DNA of 62,342 bases. Source: Sulfurimonas sp. GTDB taxonomy: Bacteria > Campylobacterota > Campylobacteria > Campylobacterales > Sulfurimonadaceae. The notes under the pieces were generated by a model. That model was not told the origin of the DNA and made no database searches. It was given only the letters and a program-made list of their open reading frames with translations. A program made the translations under genes and the position numbers. Shown piece after piece: positions 10,962 through 62,197 of the stretch (position 1 is its first letter; each line of letters opens with the position of its first letter). Where the stretch lies: NCBI RefSeq assembly GCF_019429335.1, contig NZ_JAHYJB010000002.1, positions 1 to 62,342 on the forward strand, in the 5' to 3' direction.

Positions 10962-19620
<8,659 letters not shown>

Positions 19621-50046: not shown

Positions 50047-53000
50047 ATGCTAGACCAATTTAAAAATCAATACGCACTTTCAAAAACTTTGCGTTTTGAA
50101 CTTAAACCTCTCGGCGAAACGCTCAAACACATAGAAGCTAAAGGTCTCATTGCGCAAGATAAAACACGTGCAGAGGAGTATCAAGAAGTAAAAACAGTTA
50201 TCGATAAGTACCACAAAGCATTTATTGAAGAAGCACTTGATGCTGTTTCATTGAGTAAACTTGAAGATTACGAAATTGCGTTTTTTGATAAAAATCGCGA
50301 CGAAAAAGCTTTTGAAAAACTTCAAGATGTATTACGCAAAGAGATTGTTGTAAGTTTTAAGAAACATCCTAAGTTTGCAACATTATTTAAAAAAGAGCTT
50401 ATCAAACTTGATTTGAAAAATTGGCAGAATTTATCTGAAGAAGAAAAAGAGCTTGTGAAACACTTTGATAATTTCACTACATACTTTACTGGCTTTCATG
50501 AAAATCGTGCCAATATGTACACAGATGAAGCAAAACACTCTTCTATCGCATACCGCATCATCCACGAAAACTTGCCTATCTTTTTAACAAACCAAAAACT
50601 TTTTGAGACAATCAAACAAAAAGCACCGCATCTCGCACAAGAGACGCAAAATGCCCTGCTTGAACATCTAAATGGAGCAGTTGTAGAGGATATGTTTGAA
50701 CTAAGTTATTTCAATCGTATGCTTTCGCAAACCCATATTAATCTTTACAATCAAATGATTGGCGGTATTAAAAAGGATGAACTAAAAATTCAAGGTTTTA
50801 ATGAAAAAATCAATCTTTATCGTCAAGCAAAAGGCTTGTCTAAGCGTGATTTACCAAATCTTAAACCATTACACAAACAAATACTAAGCGACCGAGAGAC
50901 GCTCTCTTGGCTCCCAGAAGCATTTGAAAATTACGAAGAGCTTGTGAAAGGTGTGCAAACCTATTTTGGCAACGAGGTGTTAGCCTTTGAATGTTGTGAC
51001 GGTAAAGTGAATCTTTTAGAAAAGCTGCCTGAACTTTTAGCGCAAACGCAAGATTACGATTTGTCCAAAATCTATTTTAAAAATGATGTGGCGCTCACAA
51101 GTGCATCACAAGTGATTTTCAAAGATTATCGCATCATCAAAGAAGCGCTTTGGGAAGTCAATAAACCTAAAAAGTCAAAAGATTTAGCCGCAGACGAAGA
51201 GAAGTTTTTTAACAAAAAAAACAGTTATTTTAGTATTGAGCAGATTGATGGAGCTTTAAAGTCGGCTCAACTTTCTGTAAAAATGATGGAGTATTTTCAA
51301 AGCGAATCTAGTAAACTCATCGAGCAAATCCAAACCGCTTACAACGATTGGAAACAAAACAGCTCAAACAAAGAACTCTTAAAAACGTTTTTAGATACGC
51401 TACTTTCGTATCAACGGCTTTTAAAACCGCTTAATGCTCCAAACGACCTTGAAAAAGATGTGGCTTTTTATGCCTATTTTGATTCCTATTTTGCGAGTCT
51501 AAGCGGTGTGGTTAAACTCTACGACAAAGTGCGAAACTTCATGACGAAAAAACCGTACTCACTTGAAAAATTTAAACTCAATTTTGAAAACCCAGAGTTA
51601 TTGGGTGGATGGCCAGTTGACAGAGAGATTGCAACTTCATCAGTAATTTTTAAAAAAGATGGGTTATTTTACTTAGGAATATTAAGTAGTGGAAGTAAGC
51701 GTTTTTTTAAAAATCATCCTTTACCGACAGATAAAACAGATGTTATATTAAAAATGAATTATTTACAGGCAGCAGACCCAAGTAAAGATGTTCAAAATCT
51801 CATGGTAATAAATGGGAAAACTGTTAAAAAAAATGGAAGAAAAGAAAAAAGTGGAGAATTTGCAGGTGAAAATTTACAACTAGAAAGTTTAAAAAATCAA
51901 TATCTTCCAAATGAAATTAATGAAATCCGTAAAGCAAAATCATATTCAAAAATGAGCATAACTTTTAATAAGAATGATTTAGTGAAATTTATTGATTATT
52001 ATAAACAAAGAACGATTGAATATTTTAACCAGTATTCTTTTGAATTTAATGCGAGTGAAAATTACAAGGATTTTGGAGAGTTTACTGAGCATATTAACCA
52101 ACAAGCTTATCAGATTAAATTTGTTGAAATTTCACAAAGTTATTTAAATTCTCTTGTCGATGCAGGCAAGCTATACCTATTCCAAATCTACAACAAAGAT
52201 TTCTCCCCATTTAGCAAAGGTACGCCAAATATGCACACACTTTATTGGCGTGCACTTTTTGATGAAAAAAATCTCGCCGATGTAATCTACAAGCTCAATG
52301 GGCAAGCGGAGATATTTTTCCGTCAAAAGTCAATCGACTATTCCGAAGAGAAACTTAAACTTGGGCATCACCACAATACGCTTAAAGATAAATTCGCATA
52401 CCCGATTATCAAAGACCGCCGTTTCGCTTTTGATAAGTTCCAGTTTCATGTACCCATAACGCTCAACTTTAAAGCAAAGGGCAACGAAAATATCACGCCA
52501 CAAACTTTTGAGTATATTCGTGCAAATCCCGACAATATCAAAGTTATTGGTATCGACCGCGGTGAGCGCCATCTGCTCTATCTTTCACTTATTGATGCTA
52601 AAGGGCAGATTGTAGAACAATTTACACTGAATCAAATAGTAAATAGTTATAACAGTAAAGAGCATGTTATCGACTACCATGCCAAACTTGACGCAAAAGA
52701 AAAAGACCGTGATAAAGCACGTAAAGAGTGGGGAACTGTCGAAAATATCAAGGAGCTTAAAGAAGGATATTTAAGTCACGTCATCCATAAAATCGCGACA
52801 CTCATCGTTGAACACGGTGCGATCGTAGCGATGGAAGATCTCAACTTCGGCTTTAAACGAGGACGTTTCAAAGTAGAAAAACAGGTCTATCAAAAATTTG
52901 AAAAAGCGCTTATCGACAAGCTGAACTATCTGGTCGATAAGAAAAAACAGCCCGACGAGTTAGGCGGTATTTTTAACGCACTCCAACTTACGAACAAGTT

Positions 53001-53709
53001 CCAAAGCTTTGAAAAAATGGGGAAACAAAACGGATTTTTATTTTATGTGCCTGCGTGGAATACTTCTAAAATAGACCCAGTTGCAGGGTTTGTCGATCTC
53101 TTTGATACTCGTTATGCAAGTGTAGAAAAATCCAAAGCGTTTTTTGCTAAATTTAAATCCATATGCTACAACGAAACCAAAGACTACTTTGAGTTTGCAT
53201 TTGATTACAACGACTTTACCGACAAAGCCAAAGAGACTCGTAGCGAATGGACACTTTGTACTTATGGTGAGCGAATTGTGAGTTTTAGAAATGCGGAAAA
53301 AAATCACCAATGGGACAATAAAACACTTCATCTCACAACCGAATTTAAAAATTTATTTGGTAATTATACGGGTGACTTAAAAGCAACGATTTTAGCGCAT
53401 GACGACAAAGAATTTTTTGAGAAGCTTTTACGCCTTTTACGTTTTACACTTCAGATGCGTAACTCTATTACGGGTACTGACATAGATTACCTTGTCTCTC
53501 CTGTCGCAGATAAACAAGGAAATTTTTACGATAGCCGCAAAGCTCATGGTTTGTTACCAAAAGACGCCGACGCAAACGGTGCGTACAACATTGCTCGTAA
53601 AGGCTTGATGCTCATGCGTCGCATCCAAAAAGCCGATGACCTCAAAAAAGTAAATTTGGCGATTTCAAATCGTGACTGGCTCCGCTATGCTCAAGGTTTG
53701 GAGAGCTAG
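50047..53709 (+). CDS. cas12a: CRISPR effector nuclease Cas12a (Cpf1)
   Basis: The 1220-residue type V-A effector processes its own crRNA and cuts double-stranded DNA. The N-terminus LKNQYALSKTLRFELKPLGET-like block opens the WED domain, followed by REC lobes. The RuvC triad is Asp837 (IGIDRGERH), Glu930 (VAMEDLNFGF) and Asp1175 (DADANGAYN). Arg1138 in TLQMRNS matches the Nuc-domain arginine, and HHHNTLKDKFAYPIIKDRRF is the crRNA-processing region. GGAGTTTAG precedes the ATG. The segment at roughly 51640-52165 is markedly AT-richer than its flanks and covers the PAM-interacting region. All catalytic residues are intact, so it should be active. Confidence 0.97.
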   Translation: MLDQFKNQYALSKTLRFELKPLGETLKHIEAKGLIAQDKTRAEEYQEVKTVIDKYHKAFIEEALDAVSLSKLEDYEIAFFDKNRDEKAFEKLQDVLRKEIVVSFKKHPKFATLFKKELIKLDLKNWQNLSEEEKELVKHFDNFTTYFTGFHENRANMYTDEAKHSSIAYRIIHENLPIFLTNQKLFETIKQKAPHLAQETQNALLEHLNGAVVEDMFELSYFNRMLSQTHINLYNQMIGGIKKDELKIQGFNEKINLYRQAKGLSKRDLPNLKPLHKQILSDRETLSWLPEAFENYEELVKGVQTYFGNEVLAFECCDGKVNLLEKLPELLAQTQDYDLSKIYFKNDVALTSASQVIFKDYRIIKEALWEVNKPKKSKDLAADEEKFFNKKNSYFSIEQIDGALKSAQLSVKMMEYFQSESSKLIEQIQTAYNDWKQNSSNKELLKTFLDTLLSYQRLLKPLNAPNDLEKDVAFYAYFDSYFASLSGVVKLYDKVRNFMTKKPYSLEKFKLNFENPELLGGWPVDREIATSSVIFKKDGLFYLGILSSGSKRFFKNHPLPTDKTDVILKMNYLQAADPSKDVQNLMVINGKTVKKNGRKEKSGEFAGENLQLESLKNQYLPNEINEIRKAKSYSKMSITFNKNDLVKFIDYYKQRTIEYFNQYSFEFNASENYKDFGEFTEHINQQAYQIKFVEISQSYLNSLVDAGKLYLFQIYNKDFSPFSKGTPNMHTLYWRALFDEKNLADVIYKLNGQAEIFFRQKSIDYSEEKLKLGHHHNTLKDKFAYPIIKDRRFAFDKFQFHVPITLNFKAKGNENITPQTFEYIRANPDNIKVIGIDRGERHLLYLSLIDAKGQIVEQFTLNQIVNSYNSKEHVIDYHAKLDAKEKDRDKARKEWGTVENIKELKEGYLSHVIHKIATLIVEHGAIVAMEDLNFGFKRGRFKVEKQVYQKFEKALIDKLNYLVDKKKQPDELGGIFNALQLTNKFQSFEKMGKQNGFLFYVPAWNTSKIDPVAGFVDLFDTRYASVEKSKAFFAKFKSICYNETKDYFEFAFDYNDFTDKAKETRSEWTLCTYGERIVSFRNAEKNHQWDNKTLHLTTEFKNLFGNYTGDLKATILAHDDKEFFEKLLRLLRFTLQMRNSITGTDIDYLVSPVADKQGNFYDSRKAHGLLPKDADANGAYNIARKGLMLMRRIQKADDLKKVNLAISNRDWLRYAQGLES

Positions 53710-53710
53710 T

Positions 53711-54265
53711 GTGGAGCCTTATATCCCGATTTCGTTTTTAAACGATTTTATCTTTTGTCCTCGCTCGATTTACTTTCATCAGCTTTACGGCAGAAGTGAT
53801 GAAAGTTTGTATCACAGTACCGACCAAAGTGAGGGTAAAGCCGCACATGCGACAGTCGATGCAAAAACCTACACAACGGCAAAAAAAGTGCTGCAAACCA
53901 TAGAAATCTATAGCCAGACATATGGTTTAGGTGGAAAAATAGACACTTTTGACACAGCTACCGGAGTGCTAACTGAGCGTAAAAAAAAGATAAAAGTAAT
54001 CTATGACGGCTATATCTACCAACTTTATGCACAGTACCATTGTTTGGTGGAGTCGGGTTACGAGGTACATGCCATGAGACTTTACAGTATGGATGACAAT
54101 AAAGTGTACCCCATTGCATTGCCAAGTCAAGACAAAGCGCATCAGAGTGCTTTTGAATCACTTTTACAACAAATACGCATTTTTGATATGAGTGCACCCT
54201 TTGCCGTAAACCCAAACAAATGCTTTCGATGTATCTACCGTTATTTATGTGATGTGGCAATATGA
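53711..54265 (+). CDS. cas4: CRISPR-associated exonuclease Cas4
   Basis: The 184-residue protein trims pre-spacers and helps select PAM-adjacent DNA. It has the first iron-sulfur cysteine (FIFCPRSIYF), RecB-nuclease motifs GGKIDTFD, TERKKK and QLYAQYHCL, and the C-terminal cysteine cluster NPNKCFRCIYRYLC. I prefer the GTG at 53711, two bases after the cas12a stop, because GGAG at 53700-53703 is a well-spaced ribosome-binding site; an in-frame ATG at 53687 lies inside cas12a. It overlaps cas1 by 4 bp. Confidence 0.92.
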   Translation: MEPYIPISFLNDFIFCPRSIYFHQLYGRSDESLYHSTDQSEGKAAHATVDAKTYTTAKKVLQTIEIYSQTYGLGGKIDTFDTATGVLTERKKKIKVIYDGYIYQLYAQYHCLVESGYEVHAMRLYSMDDNKVYPIALPSQDKAHQSAFESLLQQIRIFDMSAPFAVNPNKCFRCIYRYLCDVAI

Positions 54266-55233
54266 TGAGTCTTCCAGATTTCAAACAAAAGCAGATCATT
54301 ATTGCACTTTTAAACCATGGCGAAAAATTGAGTTTTAAAAACGATAATTTTGTCATTACAGACGCAGATGGGAAGATTAAACATCAATCGACATGCTATA
54401 GACTTTTTGCACTTATGATAGTCGGAAATATCAGTATCACCTCGGGGCTTTTACAGCGTTCAAAGAAGTTTGGTTTTAGTATCACGCTACTAAGTTACGG
54501 GCTTATCCCCTATGGCATGTGGCAGTATAAAACCGAAGGAAATTTTCTGTTGCGACAAAAACAATACGCTTATAAAAGTAATGCTATTGCACTTCATATT
54601 GTGCAAAACAAAATCGATCAGCAGATTATCCATCTGCAAAAAAGACGTAACAAATCAGACGCTTTGACTCAAGCTATTGATAAACTTCGTGACTATCGAG
54701 GAAGACTTTTAGATGAGTCTTTAGATTTTCAAGAAATTTTAGGTGTTGAGGGCGTGGCTTCGCGACTTTATTTTGCCCACATGTTTGACAATATCGAGTG
54801 GAACGGGCGAACGCCCAGAACCAAAAAAGATATTATCAACCTTTTGTTAGATATAGGCTACATGCAACTTTTCCATCTCATAGACGCTATGCTTAATCTC
54901 TACGGCTTTGATACCTACAAAGGTGTTTATCACAAAGAGTTTTATCAGCGAAAATCTTTAGTCGCAGATATTGTAGAGCCGTTTCGACCTATAGTGGATT
55001 ATAGAATCAGAAAAGCCTATAATCTAGGACAAATCAATCCAGATGATTTTGATTTTATAAATGGTCAATACCGTCTTTTTGGAGATAAAGCAAAGCCATA
55101 TACTAAATGGCTCTTAGAAGCGATTTTGGAATATAAAAACGAAATGTTTTTGTATGTACAGCAGTACTATAGAGCATTTATGCAAGAGAGAACCATTGGT
55201 GCATACCCGATGTTTTTAGGAAAAATACCATGA
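54262..55233 (+). CDS. cas1: CRISPR integrase Cas1
   Basis: The 323-residue Cas1 has the metal-binding set Glu163 (GVEGVASRLYF), His224 (GVYHKEFYQRK) and the Asp236/Glu239 pair (LVADIVEPFRP). With Cas2 it inserts new spacers at the leader end. ATGA overlaps with both neighbours (cas4 stop and cas2 start, 4 bp each) suggest coupled translation of the whole adaptation set. Confidence 0.97.
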   Translation: MMSLPDFKQKQIIIALLNHGEKLSFKNDNFVITDADGKIKHQSTCYRLFALMIVGNISITSGLLQRSKKFGFSITLLSYGLIPYGMWQYKTEGNFLLRQKQYAYKSNAIALHIVQNKIDQQIIHLQKRRNKSDALTQAIDKLRDYRGRLLDESLDFQEILGVEGVASRLYFAHMFDNIEWNGRTPRTKKDIINLLLDIGYMQLFHLIDAMLNLYGFDTYKGVYHKEFYQRKSLVADIVEPFRPIVDYRIRKAYNLGQINPDDFDFINGQYRLFGDKAKPYTKWLLEAILEYKNEMFLYVQQYYRAFMQERTIGAYPMFLGKIP

Positions 55234-55505
55234 TTATAGTTTCATATGACATTAGTAACGACAAACTTCGTACAAGATTTTCAAAATTTCTTTTAAAATA
55301 CGGTTTTCGTTTGCAGTACTCGATATTTCAAATCCGAAACAGCAAAAGAATTTTGGCGTTAGTTTCTTCCGAAATAAAAAATAAGTTTGAAAAATGTTTC
55401 TCTCAAACAGATAGTATCATCATTTTTAATCTGAGTGAACAGTGTAAAATAACAAGGTACGGTTATGCCAAAAACGATGAGGAAGACCTAATCATAATTG
55501 ATTAA
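55230..55505 (+). CDS. cas2: CRISPR adaptation protein Cas2
   Basis: The 91-residue ferredoxin-like protein starts MIIVSYDISNDKLRTRFSKFL with the conserved Asp7 after beta-1. As a dimer it bridges two Cas1 dimers in the integration complex. It is the last gene of the cas12a-cas4-cas1-cas2 operon; the leader and array follow. Confidence 0.96.
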   Translation: MIIVSYDISNDKLRTRFSKFLLKYGFRLQYSIFQIRNSKRILALVSSEIKNKFEKCFSQTDSIIIFNLSEQCKITRYGYAKNDEEDLIIID

Positions 55506-55621
55506 AATGCAAACCTTAGTCTTTATGCGTTTTTTATTGAATTATTGCCAACTTTTTACCTCATTTTTGAATAAAAATAGGGTAAAATGGCACGTATGGT
55601 AACAAAAATGGCAGTTTATCT
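55506..55621 (+). promoter_or_regulatory. CRISPR leader
   Basis: An AT-rich 116-bp stretch between cas2 and the first repeat. GGGTAAAATGG near 55580-55590 is a candidate -10 region about 35 bp before the first repeat. New spacers are expected to enter at its right edge; repeats nearest to it are all identical while variants lie far away, which supports this polarity. Confidence 0.7.
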
Positions 55622-58600
55622 GTCTAAAGATACCACCAAATTTCTACTGTTGTAGATTACAAAGTTTTGTACCTGCTCTACTGTGTCTAAAGATACCACC
55701 AAATTTCTACTGTTGTAGATCTATTCTTAATCCAGTTTTACTTTTTTTGTCTAAAGATACCACCAAATTTCTACTGTTGTAGATTTTGATAGTGTAAAGA
55801 TAGAGGTTGATAGTCTAAAGATACCACCAAATTTCTACTGTTGTAGATTCGGGTACATATTTATTGCCTGACGGGGTCTAAAGATACCACCAAATTTCTA
55901 CTGTTGTAGATATAAAGCAATATGTTTAGTTCACGTTGTCTAAAGATACCACCAAATTTCTACTGTTGTAGATTCAAGTGATGCACCTAGCGCAAACTCG
56001 TCTAAAGATACCACCAAATTTCTACTGTTGTAGATCTAGAAATTTCAATCCATCGTGACGAAGGTCTAAAGATACCACCAAATTTCTACTGTTGTAGATA
56101 CGAGATATTTGAACTTCTCATTATCAGGTCTAAAGATACCACCAAATTTCTACTGTTGTAGATAAAAAGCAAAACAAGCGAAGCGCAAGGGTCTAAAGAT
56201 ACCACCAAATTTCTACTGTTGTAGATCTTGTTGATATATTCTTTTAAGTCGTTGTCTAAAGATACCACCAAATTTCTACTGTTGTAGATTTGAAGCAGTG
56301 CCTCCGCCTTTTGAGGGTCTAAAGATACCACCAAATTTCTACTGTTGTAGATGAACAAAAGACGACCATTTCCACTCAAGTCTAAAGATACCACCAAATT
56401 TCTACTGTTGTAGATAAGTTCTTCGATTTTTGTTTCTTTTCGTCTAAAGATACCACCAAATTTCTACTGTTGTAGATAAAGATATTTTAAAGGCACAAGT
56501 GAGCGTCTAAAGATACCACCAAATTTCTACTGTTGTAGATGAGGATTTGTACGGGATTTTGTTTTTTGTCTAAAGATACCACCAAATTTCTACTGTTGTA
56601 GATAACCTAAAATGCCTCGTAACTGTTGCGTCTAAAGATACCACCAAATTTCTACTGTTGTAGATAAAATAACCTCAAAGAAGTAGTTTTTGTCTAAAGA
56701 TACCACCAAATTTCTACTGTTGTAGATAAGTTAAATCATTCAAATCGGCGAACAAGTCTAAAGATACCACCAAATTTCTACTGTTGTAGATTTTTACAGA
56801 TACCTCTCGACATACTCTTGTCTAAAGATACCACCAAATTTCTACTGTTGTAGATATGACAACTCCACTCTTTACAAGTCAAGTCTAAAGATACCACCAA
56901 ATTTCTACTGTTGTAGATGATAATGAAGAGATAGAAACAGAGTTGGTCTAAAGATACCACCAAATTTCTACTGTTGTAGATGAATAGCATCGGTTGGGAT
57001 TTCTCTATGGTCTAAAGATACCACCAAATTTCTACTGTTGTAGATTAGGAAGCTCCGTCATTTATGGCGGGGGTCTAAAGATACCACCAAATTTCTACTG
57101 TTGTAGATACATTAAGCAGACTTCTTAAAGAGGCAAGTCTAAAGATACCACCAAATTTCTACTGTTGTAGATCTTTACCCCTTAGTACTAGTTCGATTGT
57201 CTAAAGATACCACCAAATTTCTACTGTTGTAGATAAAATGTTTGATACGAACATAACCCAAGTCTAAAGATACCACCAAATTTCTACTGTTGTAGATATC
57301 GCTCGTTTTCGTCAAGCAGTTTGTGTCTAAAGATACCACCAAATTTCTACTGTTGTAGATATAGAATGTATAACGAAGATAAAAAAAGTCTAAAGATACC
57401 ACCAAATTTCTACTGTTGTAGATCCCAATCCACCAACGGAAGCCAACATAGTGTCTAAAGATACCACCAAATTTCTACTGTTGTAGATATAGATTTACAA
57501 TGTATTTTAGTGCCAGTCTAAAGATACCACCAAATTTCTACTGTTGTAGATTCAAGTTCTTCCATTGTCTCCATCATAAGTCTAAAGATACCACCAAATT
57601 TCTACTGTTGTAGATGTAGCTACTGCTGATTTTGCAATAGATGTCTAAAGATACCACCAAATTTCTACTGTTGTAGATAAGCAAGAGCGGCTTTTACTCT
57701 CTCATCGGTCTAAAGATACCACCAAATTTCTACTGTTGTAGATTTATAATCCAGAACACATTGCTCATTAAGTCTAAAGATACCACCAAATTTCTACTGT
57801 TGTAGATCCATTATTGCGTTAATAGTTTTTATATGTCTAAAGATACCACCAAATTTCTACTGTTGTAGATTTAGCTCACTCCTCAAGTTCTTATATTGTC
57901 TAAAGATACCACCAAATTTCTACTGTTGTAGATCACTAAATATCAAGAGCTTAAAACAAAAGTCTAAAGATACCACCAAATTTCTACTGTTGTAGATATA
58001 TTCTCGTTAAGAGTTGGTATTATTGTCTAAAGATACCACCAAATTTCTACTGTTGTAGATCTCTTAAAGAGCTATCTCGTACAAACGGTCTAAAGATACC
58101 ACCAAATTTCTACTGTTGTAGATATTCAAGCACACGCCTTTGATATAGGTCGTCTAAAGATACCACCAAATTTCTACTGTTGTAGATCTTGTGACGGTGA
58201 GAGAACACCTTTAAGTCTAAAGATACCACCAAATTTCTACTGTTGTAGATAGTAATGATGCCCTGTTGTATCTTCTAGGTCTAAAGATACCACCAAATTT
58301 CTACTGTTGTAGATGCAGGTACACTCTTCAACACTTCATCAGTCTAAAGATACCACCAAATTTCTACTGTTGTAGATCAATGCACTCTCCCTCTGCTTCA
58401 ATCTCGTCTAAAGATACCACCAAATTTCTACTGTTGTAGATAATCAAGCGGAACTATTTAGAAAGGGTAGTCTAAAGATACCACCAAATTTCTACTGTTG
58501 TAGATACAAATAGATTAATTCAACAAGGAGTGATGTCTAAAGATACCACCAAATTTCTACTGTTGTAGATAGAAAAGCACTCGAGGCTGTGTATAGTGGT

Positions 58601-61600
58601 CTAAAGATACCACCAAATTTCTACTGTTGTAGATTACCCAACTAATCCTGCTACCCCTTTTGTCTAAAGATACCACCAAATTTCTACTGTTGTAGATAAT
58701 GAATGTTAAATCCTCGTTGAACTGGTCTAAAGATACCACCAAATTTCTACTGTTGTAGATAAAGAAGCATCAACCCGCTTAGAGTAGAGTCTAAAGATAC
58801 CACCAAATTTCTACTGTTGTAGATGCAAACAAGAAAGCAGCCAAAGCAAACGGGGTCTAAAGATACCACCAAATTTCTACTGTTGTAGATGTGAGTGGGG
58901 CAAAATTCCCTGCTACTGTCTAAAGATACCACCAAATTTCTACTGTTGTAGATAACTAAATGTTAATAATCTACAAATAACGTCTAAAGATACCACCAAA
59001 TTTCTACTGTTGTAGATTTTGTCTACACTTTGTAGCTTCATCCCGTCTAAAGATACCACCAAATTTCTACTGTTGTAGATAGAGTGGTCGTCATACCCTG
59101 CTTCTGCGTCTAAAGATACCACCAAATTTCTACTGTTGTAGATATGAAACTCAAAAACAGACCAATGAGGCGTCTAAAGATACCACCAAATTTCTACTGT
59201 TGTAGATTCATGACTCTGGACTTTATCATAGTGCAGTCTAAAGATACCACCAAATTTCTACTGTTGTAGATAAATAGCTCTCTCTGGTTTTTCTTCTTTT
59301 GTCTAAAGATACCACCAAATTTCTACTGTTGTAGATATGAAGATTCAATAGCATTGTATAAATTGTCTAAAGATACCACCAAGTTTCTACTGTTGTAGAT
59401 GCACCATGTAAAACACTACAATAAACGCAGTCTAAAGATACCACCAAATTTCTACTGTTGTAGATAAACCTCGTCTATCTTATAAGGGATTGTGGTCTAA
59501 AGATACCACCAAATTTCTACTGTTGTAGATTTTTTTACGTCAATAACCATTGATAAAGTCTAAAGATACCACCAAATTTCTACTGTTGTAGATTTTGTAC
59601 CAATATCAAAGAATGTATCTGGTCTAAAGATACCACCAAATTTCTACTGTTGTAGATTGTACAATTTCATCATCTCACAAGCTCTGTCTAAAGATACCAC
59701 CAAATTTCTACTGTTGTAGATAGAAGAGAACTTGCTCTTTTGCTATTTTGTCTAAAGATACCACCAAATTTCTACTGTTGTAGATTTCCAATTCTCTTGA
59801 TGTATCTCGTGACGTCTAAAGATACCACCAAATTTCTACTGTTGTAGATATGAGTTTGAAGCAGATAGTGACAAGATGTCTAAAGATACCACCAAATTTC
59901 TACTGTTGTAGATTCATATTCAATCTCATATAAAAATGATAGTCTAAAGATACCACCAAATTTCTACTGTTGTAGATGAATATCATCAAGCTCTGGATGT
60001 TGTCGTCTAAAGATACCACCAAATTTCTACTGTTGTAGATGGAAATTTATTTAAAGGATAGGTGTATGGTCTAAAGATACCACCAAATTTCTACTGTTGT
60101 AGATTAATGAGCTTAATACGGGGGTTGTGGAAGTCTAAAGATACCACCAAATTTCTACTGTTGTAGATGTCTGTCAAAACGCATTTCGTGGATATGGTCT
60201 AAAGATACCACCAAATTTCTACTGTTGTAGATGTCGCAAAAGTTGTAAAAGTAAATGCAAAAAGTCTAAAGATACCACCAAATTTCTACTGTTGTAGATT
60301 AATGAGCTTAATACGGGGGTTGTGGAAGTCTAAAGATACCACCAAATTTCTACTGTTGTAGATTTAGGAGGAATATTGCACAAAAAGGTTGTCTAAAGAT
60401 ACCACCAAATTTCTACTGTTATAGATTACTATTTACCCCTCTTAAAGCCCTATTGTCTAAAGATACCACCAAATTTCTACTGTTGTAGATATGCAGCAAC
60501 CTTTTGTTTTCTTCTATGTCTAAAGATACCACCAAATTTCTACTGTTGTAGATGTCTATCAAAACGCATTTCGTGGATATGGTCTAAAGATACCACCAAA
60601 TTTCTACTGTTGTAGATGCAATTCCTTCAAGCACATCACAAACGTCTAAAGATACCACCAAATTTCTACTGTTGTAGATAAGGTATAGACTTTAAAAGTA
60701 GCGGGTGTCTAAAGATACCACCAAATTTCTACTGTTGTAGATCACTAATCTTCGCCTCTTCCTCTTTTAGGTCTAAAGATACCACCAAATTTCTACTGTT
60801 GTAGATTATAGCTCCCATCTTCGACGTAGTGGTGTCTAAAGATACCACCAAATTTCTACTGTTGTAGATTGGACGCAAAAGCAAAAGAAAAAGGATGTCT
60901 AAAGATACCACCAAATTTCTACTGTTGTAGATCAACGAGCTTAATACGGGTGTTGTGGAAGTCTAAAGATACCACCAAATTTCTACTGTTGTAGATTTAA
61001 ATAGTCCTACCAGAGCAACACTGTGTCTAAAGATACCACCAAATTTCTACTGTTGTAGATAGGGCATTGATTTTAAGAGCAGTGGCGTCTAAAGATACCA
61101 CCAAATTTCTACTGTTGTAGATGCAAGAGCTTTAATCTTTAGAGATTTGGTCTAAAGATACCACCAAATTTCTACTGTTGTAGATTACAGACTCCGAAGC
61201 CATTTTCTCAGCCGTCTAAAGATACCACCAAATTTCTACTGTTGTAGATACGACTGGATTTGACGCTGTCCACATCGGTCTAAAGATACCACCAAATTTC
61301 TACTGTTGTAGATATCAACTTTGCTATCTAAAACGTCTCTTGTCTAAAGATACCACCAAATTTCTACTGTTGTAGATGCTGTTAGTTCTCTTGTGGTTGT
61401 TACAGTCTAAAGATACCACCAAATTTCTACTGTTGTAGATGTGGAAGAGAAGCTTAGAATACAAAAGTCTAAAGATACCACCAAATTTCTACTGTTGTAG
61501 ATATTGCATCCGCCATTATCTCACAAATAGTCTAAAGATACCACCAAATTTCTACTGTTGTAGATCATTACGCAGGACAGATAAGCTGACTATGTCTAAA

Positions 61601-61684
61601 GATACCACCAGATTTCTACTGTTGTAGATGTCGGGCATATAGAGCGAAATGAATTTAGTCTAAAGATACCACCAAATTTCTACT
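55622..61684 (+). CRISPR. Type V-A CRISPR array, 95 full repeats plus one partial
   Basis: The 36-bp repeat reads GTCTAAAGATACCACCAA followed by ATTTCTACTGTTGTAGAT. The 3' part folds into the Cas12a handle TCTAC-TGTT-GTAGA, so crRNA is read on the plus strand with spacers 3' of each repeat. Counting every start, I find 95 complete repeats and a final repeat cut after 27 bases (61658-61684), enclosing 95 spacers of 26-31 bp, mostly 27-28. Three repeats carry one change each: starts 59365, 60391 and 61594, all in the distal third. Spacers 71 and 74 are identical, and several others are close variants. Confidence 0.98.
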
Positions 61685-61734: not shown

Positions 61735-62197
61735 ATAAATTTTACAAACTTCCCTATTTTTAGAGTTTCGTCATGATGCTTCGTATTTAGAAGTCATCTA
61801 TGAAAAGTATCTAAAACCGCTAAATCCACAAGGTAAAATCTATGTAATTTTTGATGAGATACAGTTCTTTGACAACCGGCAGGTTTATATAAAAAGCAAG
61901 TATGAATCGAGTGATATCAAGTTTATCATCACCGGTTCACACTCCTCTATGCTATCAAACGAACTTGGTACGCTTTTGACGGGTCGAAGTCTCAATATTT
62001 ATCTCGATACTTTTTCGTTTAGGGAATTTTTAGATTACAAGGGGATAGATTATAGTGGTGAGTTGTCACAGCTGAGGCACAAAATAAAGATATCAAGAGC
62101 AAAGGATGAGATTTTTACGGTAGAAGATGAGCTGACAAAAAAAGAGCTACTAACAAGCTATGCTAAAACTCTCAAGCAACTTAGGAACGGCACTTGA
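61735..62197 (+). pseudogene. AAA_14-type ATPase remnant
   Basis: One frame reads LEFRHDASYLEVIYEKYLKP, then IYVIFDEIQFF (Walker B), FIITGSHSSMLSNELGTLLTGR and YLDTFSFREFL, the order found in AAA_14/DUF4143 ATPases. The Walker A part is missing upstream, where the frame closes near 61735 just after the truncated last CRISPR repeat. The C-terminus after KGIDYSGEL looks unrelated to the family, and the whole is far shorter than the usual 350-450 residues. An in-frame ATG at 61949 exists but cannot make a functional ATPase. Likely a degraded gene that abuts the eroded array end. Confidence 0.75.

What the first reader, a model, noticed from the sequence alone, without database searches (positions are those of the whole stretch)
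60680..61086. Spacer pair whose eight differences are all at third codon positions (GIDFKSSG)
Spacer 80 (60680-60706) and spacer 86 (61061-61086) align over 26 bp with mismatches at positions 2, 5, 8, 11, 17, 20, 23 and 26, exactly every third base. Read from position 3, both encode Gly-Ile-Asp-Phe-Lys-Ser-Ser-Gly with different codons. This is direct evidence that the spacers were captured at the same site of one conserved gene in two diverged phages or plasmids, with the PAM kept. It identifies a recurrent acquisition hotspot and a peptide that could identify the target gene.
Basis: seen in the sequence. Interest (0 to 1): 0.85.

Follow-up and report, generated by a model that had tools for sequence, protein, structure and literature searches.

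The report
CRISPR spacers recapturing one phage-primase site
A bacterium's Cas12a CRISPR memory holds two spacers taken from exactly the same eight codons of the DNA-copying enzyme (primase-polymerase) of two different viruses, and a related species with a different CRISPR type holds a third, so the same short conserved spot was remembered independently at least three times.

Summary
Spacers 80 (60680-60706) and 86 (61061-61086) of a 94-spacer type V-A array match at 18/26 bases. All 8 differences fall in one codon phase and are synonymous (GIDFKSSG); shuffled arrays never gave such a pair.

GIDFKSSG is a near-invariant stretch of a ~750-aa phage primase-polymerase (PF09250 Prim-Pol/PriCT_2/DUF3987) encoded in an AAA/DUF669/YqaJ/PrimPol/SF2-helicase module. 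One homologue carries a TTTA PAM exactly where Cas12a needs one and matches spacer 80 at 24/27, all mismatches synonymous. Spacer 87 hits the same protein elsewhere, spacer 89 the neighbouring helicase. A congeneric genome's type I-F array holds a third spacer over the same codons.

The array has two more same-register sets: 71/74/84 on a Dam-like methyltransferase (NELNTGVVE) and 72/78 (target unknown). Repeated protospacers also occur in the three other type V-A arrays with at least 24 spacers that I read.

Best reading: independent re-acquisition at one PAM site from diverged phages of one lineage. Whether the excess reflects an acquisition hotspot or selective retention is unresolved. Exact protospacers were not found. 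The kind of event is known; the codon-level pair and cross-type convergence are the new parts.

The parts
50047..53709 (+). cas12a (1220 aa), effector of the type V-A system
   Evidence: Pfam RuvC_1 1.6e-102, REC1, NUC, Cpf1 REC2, PI-like; 78% identical Cas12a in congeneric G089
53672..54265 (+). cas4 (PAM selection in type V-A adaptation); ORF as listed, its 5' end overlaps cas12a so the true start may be later
   Evidence: Pfam Cas_Cas4 1.1e-9
54262..55233 (+). cas1 integrase
   Evidence: Pfam Cas_Cas1 2.1e-48
55230..55505 (+). cas2
   Evidence: Pfam CRISPR_Cas2 3.4e-14
55506..55621 (+). presumed leader (between cas2 and the first repeat); newest spacers next to it
   Evidence: position and sequence; orientation inferred from the truncated repeat at the far end
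55622..61629 (+). CRISPR array: 95 repeats of GTCTAAAGATACCACCAAATTTCTACTGTTGTAGAT, 94 spacers of 26-31 nt
   Evidence: three repeats carry one substitution each (59365, 60391, 61594)
61658..61684 (+). truncated repeat closing the trailer (old) end
   Evidence: GTCTAAAGATACCACCAAATTTCTACT then unrelated sequence
60680..60706 (+). spacer 80: codons GIDFKSSG of phage primase-polymerase
   Evidence: 24/27 to L031:1833 with TTTA PAM, all 3 mismatches in the same codon phase; p below 1/1128 against shuffled spacers
61061..61086 (+). spacer 86: same codons GIDFKSSG, same register, 8 synonymous differences; older than spacer 80 if the leader is at cas2
61123..61149 (+). spacer 87: ARALIFRDL, a different site of the same primase-polymerase
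   Evidence: ARAIIFREL in L023/L034, 6 nt mismatches, TTTT 5' flank; p=0.0009
61250..61277 (+). spacer 89: TTGFDAVHI, SF2 helicase encoded beside the primase-polymerase
   Evidence: TTGFDAPHI in L040/L009/L043, 23/28 nt to L040; p below 1/1128
60105..60132 (+). spacer 71: NELNTGVVE of a D12-class (Dam-like) adenine methyltransferase
   Evidence: TTTA PAM at this site in L083, L058, L053
60300..60327 (+). spacer 74: identical to spacer 71
60933..60960 (+). spacer 84: same methyltransferase site as 71/74, three synonymous differences (1, 4, 19)
60491..60517 (-). spacer 77: opposite strand of the same methyltransferase gene, IEENKRLLH
   Evidence: 9/9 residues in congeneric phage-like contig L083; 24/27 nt in L090
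60169..60196 (+). spacer 72: same site as spacer 78, one difference at PAM-proximal position 5; target unidentified
   Evidence: searches empty
60554..60581 (+). spacer 78: partner of spacer 72, older if the leader is at cas2
60807..60833 (-). spacer 82: possibly HYVEDGSY of the primase-polymerase (suggestive only)
   Evidence: HYAEEGGY in L019; p=0.004 against shuffles, about 0.4 such expected by chance among 94

Best explanation
Spacers 80 and 86 are two independent acquisitions by a Cas4-Cas1-Cas2/Cas12a (type V-A) system from the same PAM-defined protospacer. The protospacer covers the near-invariant codons GIDFKSSG of a phage primase-polymerase, present in two phages of one lineage that had diverged to saturation at silent sites. 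Shown: the synonymous-only pattern, the identical register, the gene family, a TTTA PAM at the expected place in some homologues, two further spacers against the same protein or module, and a third acquisition over the same codons by a type I-F system in a congener. Inferred: spacer 86 is the older one and no longer matched the later phage (8 mismatches, two of them at PAM-proximal positions 2 and 5), so immunity had to be rebuilt. Protein constraint kept the peptide and PAM while silent drift or escape changed the target, so naive adaptation, which selects TTTV PAMs through Cas4, could take the same protospacer again. Sets 71/74/84 and 72/78 record the same process at other sites. Whether this site is also intrinsically favoured at the capture step is left open.
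For: Pattern and shuffles. In-frame GIDFKSSG in long primase-polymerase ORFs with PF09250/PriCT_2/DUF3987. L031:1833 with TTTA PAM and 24/27 to spacer 80, all mismatches in the silent phase. The site lies in one of the most conserved blocks of seven primase-polymerases, six of them picked by whole-protein homology from phage records; 6 of the 7 have exactly GIDFKSSG. Independent support from spacers not used to find the genes: 87 (same protein), 89 (adjacent helicase), 77 (same methyltransferase as 71/74/84, 9/9 residues in a congener's contig). Type I-F spacer GTAGGCATCGACTTTAAAAGTAGCGGTTTTGT in G094 beside csy1/csy3/csy4. Type V-A adaptation picks TTTV through Cas4, with no sign of priming in the tested system (PMC9419969). 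Independent re-acquisition in another V-A array: G089 spacers 15 and 17 start at the same base but are 28 and 29 nt long.
Against: No exact protospacer was found for any of these spacers in IMG/VR patterns, 50,697 phage records or 228 same-family genomes, so target and PAM rest on homologues. Most homologues have Tyr, not Phe, before GIDFKSSG and so lack TTTV. The age order depends on the leader lying next to cas2.
Confidence: 0.93

Rival explanations
1. Acquisition hotspot: the adaptation machinery of type V-A systems strongly prefers certain protospacers (end structure, local sequence, DNA breaks), and the primase-polymerase and methyltransferase sites are such hot sites, so repeats mainly reflect biased capture. 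(This rival concerns why the site recurs; it is compatible with the best explanation.)
For: Three recurrent sites within spacers 71-86. All four type V-A arrays with at least 24 spacers that I read hold repeated protospacers: window; G089 15/17 with different trimming; L072 8/27 and 13/25 in nested order; L074 22/23 and 31/33. The one type I-F array (41 spacers) has none. Chance coincidences within the 24 trailer-end spacers would be about 0.14-0.28 pairs for 1000-2000 sites.
Against: With all 94 spacers drawn from one phage about 2 pairs are expected, and the number of spacers per phage is unknown. Small, uncontrolled sample of arrays. A type I-F system with another PAM, on the opposite strand, hit the same codons, which a V-A sequence preference would not explain.
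Confidence: 0.35
2. Selective retention: spacers land everywhere, but those against codons that phages cannot easily change (catalytic or cofactor motifs) stay useful longest and are kept, so the old end of the array is enriched for conserved sites. (Also compatible with the best explanation.)
For: All confidently assigned spacers (71, 74, 77, 80, 84, 86, 87, 89) lie in the trailer-end 24, and the identified recurrent sites code for strongly conserved peptides. Trailer-end conservation is described in nature (PMC3330103). A type I-F array converged on the same codons.
Against: Targets were recognised through conserved peptides, so conserved sites are over-represented by method. Synonymous change is available, and the pair itself shows that phages underwent it.
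Confidence: 0.35
3. Spacer 80 (or 84, 72) arose from its partner by duplication and mutation inside the array rather than by a new acquisition.
For: 71 and 74 are identical; 72 and 78 differ by one base.
Against: Array DNA is under no codon constraint, so eight changes confined to third positions cannot come from drift there. Homologues carry the same kind of silent variation. The order 71-72-74-78-80-84-86 does not fit block duplication, and 80 and 86 differ in length (27 and 26). Duplication is not excluded for 71/74 and 72/78.
Confidence: 0.02
4. Chance similarity of two unrelated spacers.
For: 18/26 identity alone occurs by chance (0.65 pairs per shuffled set).
Against: Phase probability 1.2e-5, identical peptide, and that peptide is a conserved phage motif with a PAM in homologues.
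Confidence: 0.005

Closest known systems
Synechococcus hot-spring CRISPR spacers versus a viral lysozyme/lysin gene (PMC2612747, 2009)
   Same: The target gene varies by silent or conservative changes while the peptide over the spacer stays the same
   Different: There one spacer was compared with many viral reads; here two diverged alleles of one site are both stored as spacers in the same array
Legionella pneumophila spacers against LME-1 (Rao et al. 2016, PMC5071653)
   Same: Pairs of spacers of different age target overlapping regions of one element, newer ones matching better; several systems target one element
   Different: There the element is nearly identical between hosts and a priming type I-C system acts; here the targets are diverged to saturation at silent sites and the system is type V-A, where priming was not seen in the one system tested (PMC9419969)
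Type V-A adaptation of Francisella novicida (PMC9419969, PMC13034035)
   Same: cas12a-cas4-cas1-cas2 set, TTTV PAM chosen by Cas4, similar spacer length, hotspots reported
   Different: Laboratory hotspots there were tied to replication sites of plasmids and chromosome; no codon-level recurrence in phages was studied
Trailer-end conservation in natural CRISPR arrays (PMC3330103, 2012)
   Same: The old array end holds spacers to a long-lived virus lineage
   Different: Here re-capture of the same site from diverged viruses is seen

Membership tests
CRISPR-Cas type V-A | Cas12a effector with RuvC, Nuc and REC domains | tested here: met
   Pfam hits over 1220 aa
CRISPR-Cas type V-A | cas4-cas1-cas2 next to cas12a and array | tested here: met
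CRISPR-Cas type V-A | Direct repeat ending in the TTTCTAC..GTAGAT hairpin | tested here: met
   95 copies
CRISPR-Cas type V-A | 5' TTTV PAM at the protospacers | tested here: inconclusive
   TTTA at the homologous site in L031, L064, L065/L069, L118 and, for the methyltransferase, L053, L058, L083; true protospacers not found
Phage primase-polymerase (PF09250 Prim-Pol + PriCT_2 + DUF3987) as target of 80, 86 and 87 | Spacer peptide in frame in the family | tested here: met
   GIDFKSSG in frame in 45 of 46 viral contigs, Pfam on L031, 6 of 7 aligned phage proteins
Phage primase-polymerase (PF09250 Prim-Pol + PriCT_2 + DUF3987) as target of 80, 86 and 87 | Exact protospacer in a member gene | tested here: not met
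   Best are 24/27 with PAM (L031) and 25/27 without PAM (L004, L040); the assignment is to the gene family by homology, not to a sequenced phage
D12-class adenine methyltransferase as target of 71, 74, 84 and 77 | Both spacer peptides in one member gene | tested here: met
   L083 gene has NEFNTGVVE with TTTA PAM and IEENKRLLH; Pfam MethyltransfD12 1.7e-15
CRISPR-Cas type I-F (G094 array) | csy1, csy3, csy4 beside a 28-nt repeat array with 32-nt spacers | tested here: met
   Pfam Cas_Csy1, Csy3, Csy4; 42 repeats
Primed adaptation | New spacers stimulated by partly matching old ones | not testable with these tools
   Needs experiments; not seen for V-A in PMC9419969

The most novel reading that the evidence does not exclude
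Short, protein-constrained codon stretches of phage replication genes are repeatedly captured and kept by unrelated CRISPR types (V-A and I-F) in one bacterial genus, so conserved enzyme codons act as lasting targets that phages can escape only synonymously; and type V-A systems re-acquire identical protospacers unusually often.
Probability: 0.3. Interest if true: 0.72.

Novelty: new member of a known kind. Interest (0 to 1): 0.52.

Why it matters
A synonymous-only spacer pair shows, from one array and without any virus sequence, that a host met diverged members of one phage lineage and re-took the same PAM site. It gives the gene family, frame and flanking peptide of the target. If conserved codons prove to be favoured or longest-kept targets across CRISPR types, that helps explain how old spacers stay useful and makes 'hotspot versus retention' directly testable with two small constructs.

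Tried and rejected
Exact or near protospacers: degenerate patterns for GIDFKSSG and NELNTGVVE in IMG/VR gave homologues, no exact match. The trailer-end spacers joined and run against 50,697 phage records gave only chance hits. Prophage source: no such primase-polymerase in 228 same-family genomes (no positive control there). Target of 72/78: HIHEMRFDR, S(V/I)KTHFVDM and the DNA itself gave nothing. Same phage for the methyltransferase and primase-polymerase spacers: the two genes never shared a contig among the loci held, so two phage groups are likely. GIDFKSSG-pattern hits L060-L063 in the genus are chance matches in other genes or frames. Weak translated hits (spacers 8, 30, 63, 82 and others) do not stand up clearly against shuffles. 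The primase-polymerase has no solved relative by sequence. More type V-A arrays in the order: hits were contig ends or loci already held.

Full report
What is there. The window carries a complete type V-A CRISPR locus: cas12a 50047-53709, cas4, cas1, cas2 (Pfam) and an array of 95 repeats and 94 spacers at 55622-61629, closed by a truncated repeat at 61658-61684. I take the cas2 side as the leader, because the far end has the broken repeat and the variant repeats; spacer 94 is then the oldest. This orientation is inferred.

The observation. Spacers 80 and 86 are exactly as described. Eight mismatches sit at 2, 5, 8, 11, 17, 20, 23 and 26, one codon phase, and both read GIDFKSSG. Only one of nine third positions (the TTT of Phe) is unchanged, so the two source genes had diverged to near saturation at silent sites. 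In 20 shuffled spacer sets, pairs with 8 mismatches occurred (0.65 per set) but never in one phase; conditional probability 1.2e-5. An all-against-all comparison also gives 71=74 (identical), 84 versus 71/74 (positions 1, 4, 19, all synonymous in NELNTGVVE) and 72 versus 78 (position 5 only). All sets keep the same first base, hence the same PAM position.

The target gene. GGNATHGAYTTYAARAGYAGYGG in IMG/VR hit 46 contigs. In 45 the motif is in frame inside a long ORF with the context H..Y/F-x-GIDFKSSG-F/Y-VVG-x-x-S-x-H-x-SG, homologous to one protein with Prim-Pol (PF09250), PriCT_2 and DUF3987 domains. It is encoded with an AAA protein, a protein here called DUF669-like (from memory; Pfam gave no hit), a YqaJ recombinase and an SF2 helicase. 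In an alignment with six primase-polymerases taken from phage records by whole-protein homology (Pseudomonas, Alcaligenes, Vibrio, Klebsiella phages and one uncultured; 31-39% identical), this is among the most conserved blocks and six of seven have GIDFKSSG exactly.

The PAM. Reading back from the spacer, a Cas12a PAM TTTV requires Phe (TTT) and then a codon V-A-A/G before GIDFKSSG. Most homologues have Tyr there. L031, L064, L065/L069 and L118 have Phe and TTTA in place; L031 matches spacer 80 at 24/27, all three mismatches in the silent phase. No exact protospacer was found, so PAM and target remain inferences from relatives. No genome of the family showed this gene, so the source is probably not a common prophage of the group.

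Independent support. Testing all spacers in six frames against the collected phage proteins, with shuffled spacers as control, the clear hits are: primase-polymerase 80, 86 and, at another site, 87 (ARALIFRDL, p=0.0009); the neighbouring SF2 helicase 89 (TTGFDAVHI versus TTGFDAPHI); methyltransferase 71, 74, 84 and, on the other strand, 77 (IEENKRLLH). Spacers 77, 87 and 89 played no part in finding these proteins. Contig L083, from a genome of the same genus, has one D12-class methyltransferase gene with both methyltransferase sites: NEFNTGVVE behind a TTTA PAM and IEENKRLLH letter for letter. The two target genes never shared a contig, so probably two phage groups are recorded.

Same site, other CRISPR type. 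In 228 genomes of the family and 397 of the class, the only other GIDFKSSG-coding match is spacer 23 of a 41-spacer array in congeneric G094, GTAGGCATCGACTTTAAAAGTAGCGGTTTTGT = VGIDFKSSGFV. csy1, csy3 and csy4 stand beside it: type I-F. Homologues such as L024, L025 and L046 have GG directly after this stretch, which reads CC, the type I-F PAM (general knowledge), on the strand the crRNA would use. So a system with a different PAM, working on the opposite strand, took the same codons.

How it likely works. Shown: independent captures at one register from diverged alleles. Inferred: naive adaptation, with Cas4 choosing TTTV (PMC9419969), took the site once (86); the phage lineage changed silently, including PAM-proximal positions 2 and 5, which weakens Cas12a recognition (general knowledge of Cas12a seed behaviour), while protein constraint kept peptide and PAM; a later encounter led to a second capture (80). 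Sets 71/74/84 (differences at 1 and 4) and 72/78 (5) also carry a PAM-proximal change. Priming would be an alternative trigger but was not seen in the V-A system tested.

Hotspot or not. TTTV density in these phages is about 55 per kb, so a 40-kb phage offers roughly 2,000 sites. If all 94 spacers came from one phage, about 2 coinciding pairs would be expected; within the 24 oldest spacers only about 0.14-0.28, against five pairs at three sites seen. The confident assignments all fall in the last 24 spacers (p=6.6e-6), but most of them seeded the search; counting only 77, 87 and 89 it is 0.015 (2024/134044, by hand). Among other V-A arrays, G089 (24 spacers) has 15 and 17 with the same start but 28 and 29 nt, a mark of separate capture; L072 (34) has 8=27 and 13=25 in nested order; L074 (43) has 22=23 and 31=33; the I-F array has none in 41. 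This suggests biased capture or retention, but the sample is small and exposure is uncontrolled. I leave 'hotspot' and 'retention' as rivals.

What is known. Silent viral change under a spacer is described (PMC2612747). Pairs of old and new spacers over overlapping sites, and several systems aimed at one element, are described in Legionella (PMC5071653). Trailer-end persistence is described too (PMC3330103). What I did not find in the papers searched is a synonymous-only pair inside one array that names its own target codons, or V-A and I-F arrays of one genus meeting on the same eight codons; the library is partial, so this is not a claim of first report.

Caveats. The genome is a multi-contig assembly; a 100-bp exact repeat (71/74 with flanking repeats) could be misassembled, though 80/86 and 71/84 are unaffected.

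Noticed in passing
L082 10158-12645 (G094:C13), spacer 23 at 11506-11537: A type I-F array in a congeneric genome carries a spacer over the same GIDFKSSG codons of the phage primase-polymerase.
   Followed up: yes
L114 (G089:C3), spacers 15 and 17 of its type V-A array: Same protospacer taken twice with identical first base but 28 versus 29 nt, separated by one other spacer; marks two acquisitions rather than a duplication.
   Followed up: partly
L072 array 15565-17734; L074 array 16011-18670: Other type V-A arrays hold identical spacers (L072 8/27 and 13/25 in nested order; L074 22/23 adjacent and 31/33).
   Followed up: partly
window 60169-60196 and 60554-60581: Spacers 72 and 78 differ only at position 5; the target gene could not be found.
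   Followed up: partly
L083 (G139:C105, 4.8 kb): Phage-like fragment binned with a genome of the same genus, with a D12-class methyltransferase and a second methyltransferase-like ORF; relative of the phage targeted by spacers 71, 74, 77 and 84.
   Followed up: partly
window 61949-62197: Short ORF just past the array's old end, apparently a remnant of a longer gene.
   Followed up: no
window 59365, 60391, 61594: The only three repeats with a substitution all lie in the older part of the array.
   Followed up: no
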